Both the position numbers and the translations under genes were made by a program. This document shows, piece after piece, positions 12,171-50,470 of a stretch of DNA of 64,000 bases. The DNA is taken from NCBI RefSeq assembly GCF_964204865.1, contig NC_135258.1, positions 6,873,001 to 6,937,000 of the forward strand, written 5' to 3'. Under the pieces are notes generated by a model that ran no database searches, was not told the DNA's origin, and saw only the letters and a list, made by a program, of their open reading frames with translations. Positions within the stretch are counted from its first letter, which is position 1, and each line of letters starts with the position of its first letter. The stretch comes from Styela clava (lineage: Eukaryota; Chordata; Ascidiacea; Stolidobranchia; Styelidae).

Positions 12171-12242
12171 GACTCCGTGGCGCAACGGTAGCGCGTCTGA
12201 CTTCAGATCAGAAGCCTGCGTGTTCAAATCACGTCGGGGTCA
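12171..12242 (+). tRNA. tRNA-Trp body with anticodon TCA (opal-reading)
   Basis: Loop CTTCAGA gives anticodon UCA, complementary to UGA. AGCCT variable loop, stems and A73 intact. Sister of the TTA gene at 5607. Confidence 0.92.
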
Positions 12243-12488
12243 TTCCTTTATTTCCGGATCCTTGAATCAGCTTATGAACTGACCAGTTAATAAACAAACC
12301 CTTGCGAAAACGACTAATATTCAAAAATGATTTGATTTCTGAGAAATGATTTCTGCAAACTTCAAAAAGGGTATTAGAATTAAAGTGTCATCGATTTCAA
12401 TCCATTGGTTTGCCGTATAATGTCAAAGTTTAATTGTTCGAACATTAAAATACTTAATATTGAGAATGTTCGATGTGAAAGTCATAAA

Positions 12489-12560
12489 TGGGGGCACCCG
12501 GATTTGAACCAGGGACCTCTCGATCTGCAGTCGAATGCTCTACCACTGAGATATATCCCC
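12489..12560 (-). tRNA. tRNA-Cys-GCA: tRNA-Cys(GCA)-like, class C
   Basis: Duplicate of 5925: A73, C68, U10. Confidence 0.75.
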
Positions 12561-12919
12561 ACAGTGCACTACGGGTTCTATATATAAATAATATACATAA
12601 CACGGCCTTGGGCATTGTTTAAAGTAATTAACAATCGTTTGTTTAAAACAGGTCTCAATTTACATCTATTAAATTTAATTGATGAAATACCAATACTTCA
12701 TAGCCGTGGTTCAGATAGTTATAGCCACTAAGTTATAGGTCGAAATAATTAGATATCTGAGAAACGAATTCTGCAATCTACTGAAATATTTTTATACTTG
12801 AAGTGTGATCGATTTCAATTTATAAGCCTGCCGAAAAATGTCAATGTTTATTTGAAAGTAAGAGTCATCAATATTGGGTTTCAAATATATGAACGAAGAT
12901 TTAATCCGCGACACACAGT
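12561..12919. other. Shortened spacer between Cys C and Trp C33
   Basis: 359 bp: Cys upstream flank, first part of the A-to-B spacer, then 'gtcaatgtttatttgaaagtaagagtcatc' joins the Trp upstream region, removing class B. Same junction before 35288, 38486 and 51149. No gene. Confidence 0.7.
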
Positions 12920-12991
12920 GACTCCGTGGCGCAACGGTAGCGCGTCTGACCCCAGATCAGAAGATTGCGTGTTCAAATCACGTCGGGGTCA
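12920..12991 (+). tRNA. tRNA-Trp(CCA) with C33
   Basis: Anticodon loop CCCCAGA: U33, which makes the U-turn, is replaced by C; G46 is also A (variable loop AGATT). Rest intact. C33 is otherwise known mainly from initiator tRNAs of higher eukaryotes, so an elongator Trp with C33 is likely impaired. Copies: 35288, 38486, 51149. Confidence 0.88.
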
Positions 12992-13238
12992 TTCCTTTAG
13001 TTCCGGATCCTTGAATCAGCTTATGTACTGACCAGTTAATAAATAAACCCTTGCGAAAACGACTAATATTCAAAAATGATTTGATTTCTGAGAAATGATT
13101 TCTGCAAACTTCAAAAAGGGTATTAGAATTAAAGTGTCATCGATTTCAATCCATTCGTTTGCCGTAGAATGTCAAAGTTTAATTGTTCGAACATTAGAAA
13201 TACTTGGTATTGAGAATGTTTGATGTGAAAGTCATAAA

Positions 13239-13310
13239 AGGGGACACCCGGATTTGAACCAGGGACCTCTCGATCTGCAGTCGAATGCTCTACCACTGAG
13301 CTATATCCCC
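13239..13310 (-). tRNA. tRNA-Cys-GCA: tRNA-Cys(GCA), class A
   Basis: Intact; first class A of the 4182-bp block series. Confidence 0.96.
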
Positions 13311-13908
13311 ACAGTGCACTACGGGTTCTATATTTAAATAATATACATAACACGGCCTTGGGCATTGTTCAAAGTAATTAACAATCGTTTGTTTAAAACA
13401 GGTCTCAATTAACATCTATTAAATTTAATTGATGAAATATCACTATTTCATAGCCGTGGTTCAGATAGTTATAGCCACTAAGTTATAGGTCGAAATTGAT
13501 TAGATATATGAGAATCGATTTCTGCAATCTACTGAAATATTTTTATACTTGAAGTGTGATCGATTTCAATTTATAAGCCTGTCGTAAAATGTCAAAGTTT
13601 ATTTGTTTAAACATTAAATGTTTTACAAAATATTACCCGCCATATGTGTGCAACATATATTTGAAATTGATTAGCCTTCCGCGGAACGAATTCAGCAATC
13701 CCCAAACAAATTATAAGACAATTAGTGTCATAGTTTTCTATCTATGAGCCTGTCGCAAAATGTCAAAGAATATTTGTTTCAACATTGAAAGATTTATGAT
13801 GTATTGACCGCCATGAATGTTCGAAACGACAGAATCTTTAGATGTCAAAATTACTTGTTGAAACATTAAAAATTTGATTTTGAGAAAGTGTGATGTGAAA
13901 GTCATACA

Positions 13909-13980
13909 TGGGGACACCCGGATTTGAATCAGGGACCTATCGATCTGCAGTCGAATGCTCTACCACTGAGCTATATCCCC
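13909..13980 (-). tRNA. tRNA-Cys-GCA: tRNA-Cys(GCA)-like, class B
   Basis: Class B body unchanged. Confidence 0.82.
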
Positions 13981-14143
13981 ACAATCCACAACGGTCCGCT
14001 TTTTACCCCACGGGCATTAATATAGAAAACCTATTTTATCTGTTCGGAAAGATTCTCTCCTCAATTTATCAGTTCATGCTTGACAGAGTCATCAATATTG
14101 GGTTTCAAATATATGAACGAAGATTTGATCCGCGACACACAGC

Positions 14144-14215
14144 GACTCCGTGGCGCAACGGTAGCGCGTCTGACTCCAGATCAGAAGGTTGCGTGTTCAA
14201 ATCACGTCGGGGTCA
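14144..14215 (+). tRNA. tRNA-Trp-CCA: tRNA-Trp(CCA)
   Basis: Intact; 3' flank reads 'attgctttattt'. Confidence 0.96.
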
Positions 14216-14462
14216 TTGCTTTATTTCCGGATCCTTGAATCAGCTTATGAACTGACCAGTTAATAAATAAACCCTTGCGAAAACGACTAATATTCAAAAA
14301 TGATTTGATTTCTGAGAAATGATTTCTGCAAACTTCAAAAAGGGTATCAGAATTAAAGTGTCATCGATTTCAATTCATTCGTTTGCCGTAGAATGTCAAA
14401 GTTTAATTGTTCGAACATTAGAAATACTTGGTATTGAGAATGTTTGATGTGAAAGTCATAAA

Positions 14463-14534
14463 AGGGGACACCCGGATTTGAACCAGGGACCTCTCGATCT
14501 GCAGTCGAATGCTCTACCACGGAGCTATATCCCC
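14463..14534 (-). tRNA. tRNA-Cys-GCA: tRNA-Cys(GCA), class A, A14C
   Basis: A14 to C removes the conserved partner of U8 and alters the A-box. T73 and TTTT kept. Copies: 18645, 29017. Function doubtful. Confidence 0.82.
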
Positions 14535-48235: not shown

Positions 48236-48307
48236 AGGGGACACCCGGATTTGAACCAGGGACCTCTCGATCTGCAGTCGAATGCTCTACCACTGAGCTA
48301 TATCCCC
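48236..48307 (-). tRNA. tRNA-Cys-GCA: tRNA-Cys(GCA), class A, short 5' flank
   Basis: Copy of 44689. Confidence 0.94.
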
Positions 48308-48428
48308 ACAGTGCACTAAGTTATAGGTCGAAATTGATTAGATATCTGAGAAACGAATTCTGCAATCTACTGAAATATTTTTATACTTGAAGTGTGATTT
48401 TGAGAAAGTGTGATGTGAAAGTCATACA

Positions 48429-48500
48429 TGGGGACACCCGGATTTGAATCAGGGACCTATCGATCTGCAGTCGAATGCTCTACCACTGAGCTATATCCCC
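48429..48500 (-). tRNA. tRNA-Cys-GCA: tRNA-Cys(GCA)-like, class B
   Basis: Copy of 44882. Confidence 0.82.
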
Positions 48501-48663
48501 ACAATCAACAACGGTCCGCTTTTTACCCCACGGGCATTAATATAGAAAACCTATTTTATCTGTTAGGAAAGAATCTCTCCTCAATTTATCAGTTCATGCT
48601 TGACAGAGTCATCAATATTGGGTTTCAAATATATGAACGAAGATTTAATCCGCGACACACAGT

Positions 48664-48735
48664 GACTCCGTGGCGCAACGGTAGCGCGTCTGACTCCAGA
48701 TCAGAAGGTTGCGTGTTCAAATCACGTCGGGGTCA
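48664..48735 (+). tRNA. tRNA-Trp-CCA: tRNA-Trp(CCA)
   Basis: Copy of 45117. Confidence 0.96.
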
Positions 48736-48982
48736 TTCCTTTATTTCCGGATCCTTGGATCAGCTTATGAACTGACCAGTTAATAAATAAACCCTTGCGA
48801 AAACGACTAATATTCAAAAATGATTTGATTTCTGAGAAATGATTTCTGCAAACTTCAAAAAGTGTATTAGAATTAAAGTGTCATCGATTTCAATCCATTC
48901 GTTTGCCGTAAAATGTCAAAGTTTAATTGTTCGAACATTAGAAAAACTTGGTATTGAGAATGTTTGATGTGAAAGTCATAAA

Positions 48983-49054
48983 AGGGGACACCCGGATTTG
49001 AACCAGGGACCTCTCGATCTGCAGTCGAATGCTCTACCACTGAGCTACATCCCC
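48983..49054 (-). tRNA. tRNA-Cys-GCA: tRNA-Cys(GCA), class A, A7G, short 5' flank
   Basis: Copy of 45436 with a new G7-U66 wobble; T73, TTTT. Confidence 0.92.
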
Positions 49055-49493
49055 ACAGTGCACCAAGTTATAGGTCGAAATTGATTAGATATCTGAGAAA
49101 CGAATTGTGCAATCTACTGAAAAATTTTTATACTTGAAGTGTGATCGATTTCAATTTATAAGCCTGCCGTAAAATGTCAAAGTTTATTTGTTTAAACATT
49201 AAATGTTTTGCAAATTATTAACCGCCATATGTGTGCAACAAATAGTTGAAATTGATTAGCCTTCTGCGGAACGAATTCAGCAATCCCCAAACAAATTATA
49301 AGACAATTAGTTTCATAGTTTTCTATCTATGAGCCTGTCGTAAAATGTCAAAGAATATTTGTTTCAACATTGAAAGATTTATGATGTATTGACCGCCATG
49401 AATGTTCGAAGCGACAGTATCTTTAGATGTCAAAATTACTTGTTTAAACATTAAAAATTTGATTTTGAGAAAGTGTGATGTGAAAGTCATACA

Positions 49494-49565
49494 TGGGGAC
49501 ACCCGGATTTGAATCAGGGACCTATCGATCTGCAGTCGAATGCTCTACCACTGAGCTATATCCCC
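49494..49565 (-). tRNA. tRNA-Cys-GCA: tRNA-Cys(GCA)-like, class B body with class A 5' flank
   Basis: Copy of 45947. Confidence 0.82.
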
Positions 49566-50163
49566 ACATTGCACTACGGGTTCTATATTTGAATAATATA
49601 CATAACAAGCCCTTGGGCATTGTTTAAAGTAATTAACAATCGTTTGTTTAAAACAGGTCACAATTAACATCTATTAAATTTAATTGATGAAATATCACAA
49701 TTTCATAGCCGTGGTTCAGATAGTTATAGCCACTAAGTTATAGGTCGAAATTGATTAGATATCTGAGAAACGAATTCTGCAATCTACTGAAATATTTTTA
49801 TACTTGAAGTATGATCGATTTCAATTTATAAGCCTGCCGTAAAATGTCAAAGTTTATTTGTTTGGACATTAAATGTTTTGCAAATTATTAACCGCCATAT
49901 GTGTGCAACAAATAGTTGAAATTGATTAGCCTTCTGCGGAACGAATTCAGCAATCCCCAAACAAATTATAAGACAATTAGTTTCATAGTTTTCTATCTAT
50001 GAGCCTGTCGCAAAATGTCAAAGAATATTTGTTTCAACATTGAAAGATTTATGATGTATTGACCGCCATGAATGTTCGAAGCGACAGAATCTTTAGATGT
50101 CAAAATTACTTGTTGAAACATTAAAAATTTGATTTTGAGAAAGTGTGATGTGAAAGTCATACA

Positions 50164-50235
50164 TGGGGACACCCGGATTTGAATCAGGGACCTATCGATC
50201 TGCAGTCGAATGCTCTACCACTGAGCTATATCCCC
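50164..50235 (-). tRNA. tRNA-Cys-GCA: tRNA-Cys(GCA)-like, class B
   Basis: Copy of both 46617 (3547 bp) and 34303 (15861 bp); the two duplications meet here. Confidence 0.82.
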
Positions 50236-50398
50236 ACAATCCACAACGGTCCGCTTTTTACCCCACGGGCATTAATATAGAAAACCTATTTTATCTGTTA
50301 GGAAAGAATCTCTCTTCAATTTATCAGTTCATGCTTGACAGAGTCATCAATATTGGGTTTCAAATATATGAACGAAGATTTAATCCGCGACACACAGT

Positions 50399-50470
50399 GA
50401 CTCCGTGGCGCAACGGTAGCGCGTCTGACTTCAGATCAGAAGGTTGCGTGTTCAAATCACGTCGGGGTCA
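50399..50470 (+). tRNA. tRNA-Trp body with anticodon TCA (opal-reading)
   Basis: Matches 34538 at offset 15861; UCA is the only change from the reference. Confidence 0.94.

What the first reader, a model, noticed from the sequence alone, without database searches (positions are those of the whole stretch)
12171..50470. Eight tRNA-Trp genes with a UGA-reading TCA anticodon
Loci 12171, 17102, 21284, 24991, 26215, 34538, 37736 and 50399 have loop CTTCAGA in otherwise normal Trp bodies (34538, 37736 and 50399 differ from the main gene by this base alone). They sit on at least four sequence backgrounds (AGCCT variable loop, C11T, C61T, unchanged), so C34T arose repeatedly or was spread by gene conversion, then amplified. 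With a standard nuclear code these would be opal suppressors inserting Trp; carrying so many is unexpected unless silenced, poorly charged, or used for programmed readthrough.
Basis: partly seen in the sequence, partly recalled or inferred. Interest (0 to 1): 0.92.

Follow-up and report, generated by a model that had tools for sequence, protein, structure and literature searches.

The report
Stop-reading tRNA variants in tRNA array
A long tandem array of tryptophan and cysteine tRNA genes in an animal-like genome contains nine tryptophan tRNA copies whose anticodon matches a stop codon, most likely bystander mutations copied around by recombination in a poorly expressed repeat rather than a working stop-codon-reading system.

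Summary
All eight loci are 72-nt tRNA-Trp genes with anticodon TCA and intact bodies. In the genome letters not withheld, all nine lie in this window, inside an ~85-kb Trp/Cys tRNA array of an unnamed 377-Mb eukaryote. 'Repeated origin' is weaker than stated: five of nine share one 3' flank; 17102 and 21284 share a 5' SNP with three of those five; 24991 is a visible recombinant; 26215 differs from its CCA twin 22508 by 3 bases in 2,483, one of them C34T. One to three mutations plus amplification and conversion suffice. C34T is an ordinary allele of the array (9 of 46 copies, 4th of 67 derived alleles), and gene bodies vary as much as flanks. No T4 terminator lies within 25 nt of the nine (array Trp genes: 2 of 52); Trp-like genes on another chromosome have one (6 of 6, five with withheld letters). 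A U33C gene amplified with them. UGA is still a stop, eRF1 looks canonical, and a true tRNA-Sec exists elsewhere. Best reading: neutral, probably poorly expressed variants of a repeat. Expression was not testable.

The parts
5607..5678 (+).
   Evidence: RF00005 66.3 bits
12171..12242 (+). Trp tRNA gene, anticodon TCA, AGCCT background (group A)
   Evidence: 65.7 bits
17102..17173 (+). Trp tRNA gene, TCA, C11T (group B)
21284..21355 (+). Trp tRNA gene, TCA, C11T (group B)
24991..25062 (+). Trp tRNA gene, TCA, C11T (group B); recombinant: left flank like CCA gene 28698, right flank like TCA gene 21284
26215..26286 (+). Trp tRNA gene, TCA, C61T (group C)
22508..22579 (+). CCA twin of 26215 (same C61T); surrounding 2,483 bp differ by 3 bases, one of them C34T
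34538..34609 (+). Trp tRNA gene, TCA, otherwise the standard body (group D)
37736..37807 (+). Trp tRNA gene, TCA, otherwise the standard body (group D)
50399..50470 (+). Trp tRNA gene, TCA, otherwise the standard body (group D)
12920..12991 (+). Trp gene with U33C (loop CCCCAGA), 749 bp after TCA gene 12171
35288..35359 (+). Trp gene with U33C, 750 bp after 34538
38486..38557 (+). Trp gene with U33C, 750 bp after 37736
51149..51220 (+). Trp gene with U33C, 750 bp after 50399
34303..40698 (.). Two tandem copies of a 3,198-bp higher-order repeat (TCA gene, U33C gene, CCA gene, Cys genes) differing at 25 bases; a third copy at 50164-53362
1..64000 (.). Window lies inside the Cys(-)/Trp(+) tRNA array, which spans about C10:6854178-6939665

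Best explanation
The nine genes are anticodon-mutant copies (C34T; in one, C34T plus C35T) of tRNA-Trp inside a recombining tandem repeat whose Trp genes show no detectable constraint and are probably weakly or not expressed. One to three C34T mutations were copied by unequal exchange and gene conversion, and multiplied with higher-order repeats that also carry other defective copies. Shown: the sequences, shared flanks, a recombinant, repeat copies, equal variation in gene bodies and flanks, and missing T4 terminators. Inferred: low expression and neutrality. If a little UCA-tRNA-Trp is made it would probably be charged with Trp (A73 and the acceptor stem are intact) and suppress UGA weakly, with little effect at natural stops, which would explain why it is tolerated.
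For: Variation in Trp bodies equals flanks: 13 of 71 sites against 49 of 240, pi 0.019 against 0.022-0.024, Fisher p 0.87, over 46 of 52 copies. C34T (TTA gene included) is in 9 of 46 copies; three flank alleles are commoner (14, 13, 12), rank 4 of 67. Repeat-pair differences: intergenic 99/14018, Cys 15/2119, Trp 6/1109 over seven partly overlapping pairs. 45 of 406 site pairs fail the four-gamete test, C34T against five sites. Shared flanks and a recombinant; 3 differences in 2,483 bp around 22508/26215. T4 within 25 nt: 0 of 9 stop-anticodon genes, 2 of 43 CCA genes; on C18, 1 of 1 readable Trp gene and 5 of 5 withheld Trp-like stretches. U33C gene in four copies about 750 bp from TCA genes. 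Two Cys copies left of the window carry a GCT anticodon. UGA stop and eRF1 motifs. Lueck 2019 (PMC6379413, passages): engineered human tRNA-Trp(UCA) inserts Trp at UGA, was the weakest UGA-suppressing family of the screen, and gave no observable change at native stops. Zebrafish clustered tRNA genes: near-complete CpG methylation, heterochromatin (PMC11574265, passages).
Against: No expression data. The gene bodies fit the tRNA model, and the standard-background TCA gene scores slightly above the CCA gene (69.2 v 67.6 bits). Absence of T4 is not proof of silence: the Pro (2/28) and Lys (0/5) genes of two other arrays and 61 of 105 Cys genes of the window also lack T4, and most Trp genes are followed by CTTTATTT, which might act as a weak non-canonical terminator. 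With about 50 Trp copies in the window alone, selection per copy is weak even if all are expressed, so equal variation in body and flank is not proof of silence. The Trp-body test has 13 variable sites, so it excludes only strong constraint. That the five withheld C18 stretches are Trp genes rests on their flanks, and the one readable C18 gene is itself diverged from the array consensus, so the 'working set elsewhere' is inferred.
Confidence: 0.72

Rival explanations
1. Functional opal (and one ochre) suppressors: the array is expressed in some stage, for example germ line or early embryo, and supplies UCA-tRNA-Trp for programmed UGA readthrough.
For: Nine copies with good bodies (eight scored), clean anticodon stems, A73 discriminator. 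A tandem tRNA array that is silent in most tissues can be switched on in particular cells: Arabidopsis SYY cluster (PMC12308677, passages).
Against: No constraint detected on the gene bodies, no T4 terminator in 9 of 9, a U33C gene amplified alongside, no TCA copies found outside this array in readable sequence, and one copy has drifted on to TTA, which reads another stop.
Confidence: 0.07
2. Expressed but harmless: the UCA copies are transcribed and charged at some level, suppress UGA weakly, and are tolerated because natural stops are buffered; no function.
For: [quoted passage not shown] The gene bodies look intact.
Against: T4 terminators missing in all nine, so ordinary Pol III output would probably be poor.
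Confidence: 0.18
3. Genetic code change: UGA is read as Trp in this organism.
For: UCA-tRNA-Trp is the expected decoder.
Against: Two histone H3 genes on separate chromosomes (L036, L037) end in TGA after the conserved C-terminus (the other 40 histone frames read there end in TAA or TAG); the eRF1 frame on C18 keeps TASNIKS and YLCDNKF; a separate tRNA-Sec gene exists.
Confidence: 0.01
4. Assembly or base-calling artefact at the eight or nine sites.
For: Collapsed or mixed repeats are error-prone and no reads were available.
Against: The variant sits on four distinct backgrounds with linked flank markers, and the group D copies lie in repeats that differ at 22-25 bases over 3.2 kb.
Confidence: 0.02

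Closest known systems
Possible suppressor tRNA genes listed by genome annotation (e.g. PltRNAdb, PMC9126412)
   Same: tRNA genes whose anticodon (TCA, TTA, CTA) matches a stop codon in nuclear genomes; 1,325 among 331,242 nuclear tRNA genes of 256 plants (abstract and passages)
   Different: Here eight TCA copies plus a TTA derivative are amplified together inside one array, and their spread can be traced
Heterochromatic tRNA clusters: zebrafish chromosome 4; Arabidopsis SYY cluster
   Same: Large clusters of tRNA genes; zebrafish clusters near-completely CpG-methylated (PMC11574265, passages); the SYY tandem cluster silent in most tissues and carrying variant and pseudogene copies (PMC12308677, passages)
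   Different: No chromatin or RNA data here; different tRNAs
Entamoeba tRNA gene arrays (PMC2652664)
   Same: Tandem units of a few tRNA genes (abstract)
   Different: There almost all tRNA genes are in arrays and most copies of a unit are uniform; here copies vary and presumed working copies also lie elsewhere
Engineered anticodon-edited tRNA-Trp(UCA) (Lueck 2019, PMC6379413)
   Same: Same change, CCA to UCA on an animal tRNA-Trp (passages)
   Different: Engineered and over-expressed there; natural and of unknown expression here

Membership tests
tRNA-Trp opal suppressor gene (sequence sense) | Intact tRNA-Trp body with UCA anticodon | tested here: met
tRNA-Trp opal suppressor gene (sequence sense) | Discriminator A73, which a review names as the major Trp determinant in human | tested here: met
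   Base 72 of the gene is A; A73 statement read in PMC9976931 section 19
tRNA-Trp opal suppressor (functional sense) | Mature charged UCA-tRNA that reads UGA | not testable with these tools
   No RNA or translation data
Pol III tRNA gene with canonical terminator | T4 or longer T-run shortly after the gene | tested here: not met
   0 of 9 stop-anticodon genes, 2 of 43 CCA genes in the window within 25 nt
tRNA-Sec | Long (about 85-91 nt) form matching RF01852 | tested here: not met
   72 nt and RF00005 matches; of 53 candidates scored genome-wide only C6:8370628-8370713 passes the RF01852 cut-off (sequence read)
Nuclear UGA-to-Trp code | UGA no longer used as stop; altered eRF1 | tested here: not met
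   TGA ends two H3 genes; eRF1 motifs canonical in the C18 frame
Silent clustered tRNA array | Tandem near-identical tRNA genes | tested here: met
Silent clustered tRNA array | Repressed or methylated chromatin | not testable with these tools
   No epigenome data

The most novel reading that the evidence does not exclude
The array is switched on in a restricted cell type or stage, and the amplified UCA (and UUA) tRNA-Trp copies give a regulated dose of stop-codon suppression, a natural animal readthrough system encoded in a recombining tRNA repeat.
Probability: 0.06. Interest if true: 0.88.

Novelty: new member of a known kind. Interest (0 to 1): 0.34.

Why it matters
If neutral, it shows that stop-reading anticodons can arise and amplify inside a tRNA array without visible constraint, so counts of suppressor or 'tRNA-SeC' calls in annotations should not be read as function. 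If expressed, it would be a natural test of how much UGA and UAA suppression an animal genome tolerates.

Tried and rejected
tRNA-Sec reading: rejected. Code change: rejected. CpG decay as the cause of C34T: position 34 is followed by C in CCA, so it is not a CpG site (sequence). Four fully independent C34T events: judged unlikely; the exact number, 1-3, is not settled, and whether 26215 gained T or 22508 regained C by conversion is open. Naming the species: failed. The Rfam 18S search did not complete, the 18S loci found by pattern were withheld where the pattern lay, and no COX1 was found. Genome-wide CCA count: only 9 places, because most such copies are withheld, so the total number of Trp genes is unknown and further TCA genes inside withheld stretches cannot be excluded by letters. 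In the variation test 6 of 52 Trp copies (3885, 5078, 11642, 15878, 20060, 29922) were dropped before counting because their flanks or acceptor stems are rearranged. Of the pairs aligned, four were not carried into the difference count: two that align only with large gaps (4843/11407 and 15133/19315), the comparison of the second and third group D repeat copies, and the short one around 12171; two further pairs were added there. The Cys body/flank comparison was set aside because its flanks are structurally mixed; it showed lower variation in Cys bodies (pi 0.025 and 0.008 against 0.06-0.28 in flanks), so constraint on Cys genes is not excluded. Single-sequence folds: acceptor, D and T arms formed for TCA (34538), CCA (36512) and TTA (5607) genes, with the canonical anticodon arm only in the TTA gene and a shifted one in the other two; the U33C gene 35288 (which also carries A15G) misfolded; not decisive. 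A first idea that eRF1 has a second copy on C3 was dropped: the C3 pieces that match the eRF1_1 family do not align with the C18 eRF1, so they are another gene, perhaps pelota (recalled). Papers: passages only for PMC6379413, PMC9278858, PMC12308677, PMC9976931 (plus one section), PMC9126412, PMC3868979, PMC5330540 and PMC11574265; abstract and outline for PMC2652664; others were seen only as search listings. PMC9278858 (budding yeast) gives five Ts as the minimal functional terminator in vitro; T4 as the animal minimum is recalled. Statement on print: among the rows listed I saw no paper on a natural amplified UCA tRNA-Trp array in an animal; this covers only listed rows of open-licence PMC papers.
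Full report
Setting. The window is G000:C10:6873001-6937000 of an unnamed 377-Mb eukaryotic genome in 379 contigs. It is filled by a tandem array of tRNA-Cys genes on the minus strand and Trp-type genes on the plus strand: 106 Cys, 43 Trp(CCA), 8 TCA and 1 TTA by ARAGORN, plus 3 intron-containing Arg calls when introns are allowed. The array runs from about C10:6854178 to 6939665, and a tRNA-Leu/tRNA-Pro array lies to its left. Animal-like origin is inferred from the tRNA, histone and eRF1 sequences; the species could not be named.

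Observation. All eight TCA genes are present at the stated coordinates on the stated backgrounds. A ninth gene, at 5607, has anticodon TTA on the AGCCT background of 12171, presumably CCA to TCA to TTA by two C-to-T steps. The nine are the only matches in the searchable genome to the Trp anticodon arm with TCA or TTA (9 forward, 0 reverse, 0 in the reversed-pattern control). Rfam tRNA scores for the eight stop-anticodon genes within 4800-39900 are 63.4-69.2 bits, in the range of the CCA copies.

How they spread. The right flank of 5607, 12171, 34538, 37736 and 50399 carries the same set of markers, seen in part also in the CCA gene 32646. Genes 17102 and 21284 carry a 5' SNP that 34538, 37736, 50399 and the CCA gene 1219 share; 24991, 26215, 5607 and 12171 do not carry it. 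Gene 24991 matches CCA gene 28698 on its left (2 mismatches over 2,380 nt, the first being C11T) and TCA gene 21284 on its right (1,221 nt exact), so it is a recombinant with an exchange point in or near the gene. Gene 26215 and CCA gene 22508 lie in 2,483-bp copies with three differences, one of them C34T. A fresh mutation at that exact base among three would be a roughly 1-in-2,000 coincidence (my estimate), so conversion in one direction or the other is favoured. The 3,198-bp repeat 34303-37500 is copied at 37501-40698 (25 differences) and 50164-53362 (25 substitutions and one gap). In each copy, and after 12171, a U33C Trp gene follows the TCA gene by about 750 bp; none follows 5607 at that distance. 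U33 is almost universally conserved in tRNA (recalled), so this probably defective gene multiplied with the TCA gene. One to three C34T events therefore suffice.

Is it under selection? Over 46 of 52 Trp copies with comparable flanks, 13 of 71 body sites and 49 of 240 flank sites vary (Fisher p 0.87). The C34T count of 9 of 46 is exceeded by three flank alleles (14, 13, 12) and ranks 4th of 67 derived alleles. Across seven repeat-pair comparisons, which partly overlap, differences are 99/14018 intergenic, 15/2119 Cys and 6/1109 Trp. Recombination is pervasive: 45 of 406 site pairs fail the four-gamete test. The anticodon change therefore behaves like an ordinary repeat variant. A comparison of Cys bodies with structurally mixed flanks did show lower body variation, so constraint on the Cys genes is not excluded.

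Are they expressed? Not known. A T4 run within 25 nt follows 0 of 9 stop-anticodon genes and 2 of 43 CCA genes in the window, 0 of 7 readable Trp genes of the array outside it, and, within 30 nt, 1 of 12 withheld Trp-like stretches there. On C18, 1 of 1 readable Trp gene (itself diverged from the array consensus) and 5 of 5 withheld Trp-like stretches (identified by their GACTC flank) have one within a few bases. Leu(TAA) genes of the neighbouring array have it in 20 of 20, Ser(TGA) genes of a C3 array in 23 of 25, and five Cys genes outside the array at C10:6.956 Mb in 5 of 5. Against a simple reading, 61 of 105 Cys genes of the window, 26 of 28 Pro genes and 5 of 5 Lys genes lack T4 too, so weak terminators are common in this genome's arrays, or the species uses other signals. 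Most array Trp genes are followed by CTTTATTT. In yeast, T-tracts are described as necessary for termination and short ones as weak (PMC9278858, passages).

Consequences if made. UGA remains a stop: H3 genes L036 and L037 end in TGA, while the other 40 histone frames read at 12 loci end in TAA or TAG. The C18 eRF1 frame has TASNIKS and YLCDNKF, and a separate tRNA-Sec gene is present. A UCA-tRNA-Trp would most likely be charged with Trp: A73 is named as the major determinant in human, though the anticodon also counts in other taxa, and an amber version is mischarged by plant LysRS (PMC9976931 section 19). The engineered human UCA version inserts Trp at UGA; [quoted passage not shown] Tolerance is therefore not surprising even with some expression.

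Comparison. Stop-anticodon tRNA genes are routinely listed in genomes: 1,325 of 331,242 nuclear tRNA genes in 256 plants (PMC9126412). ARAGORN often over-calls tRNA-Sec (PMC5330540, passages). Anticodon switching is reported across the tree of life (PMC3868979, passages). Large tRNA clusters are methylated and heterochromatic in zebrafish (PMC11574265, passages), and a tandem cluster is mostly silent in Arabidopsis (PMC12308677, passages). This locus is a new and unusually clear member of that kind: stop-reading copies amplified in a tRNA repeat. No evidence found here makes it a working suppressor system, and only RNA data can exclude one.

Noticed in passing
L011:8905-8978 and L012:813-886 (C10:6861905 and 6863813): Two Cys-array tRNA genes with anticodon GCT (Ser) on a Cys body, 1,908 bp apart: another anticodon variant present twice in the same array.
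   Followed up: partly
12920, 35288, 38486, 51149: Four Trp copies with U33C in the anticodon loop, amplified together with TCA genes.
   Followed up: yes
C10:6813001-6853000 (L025, L024, L009, L010): Neighbouring array of Leu(TAA) and Pro tRNA genes; readable Leu genes have T4 terminators (20 of 20), Pro genes mostly do not (2 of 28).
   Followed up: partly
L034 (C3:23580001-23590000): Dense Ser/Arg/Lys/Gly tRNA array, 43 tRNA genes in 10 kb; related Rfam hits run from about 23.495 to 23.755 Mb on C3.
   Followed up: partly
3022-3541, 7149-7668, 9555-10075: Intron-containing 'tRNA-Arg(gcg)' calls by ARAGORN that overlap T-rich repeats; probably spurious.
   Followed up: no
L048 (C18:6407921): eRF1 is a long uninterrupted (apparently intronless) frame, 434 aa from its first ATG, ending in TAA.
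   Followed up: partly
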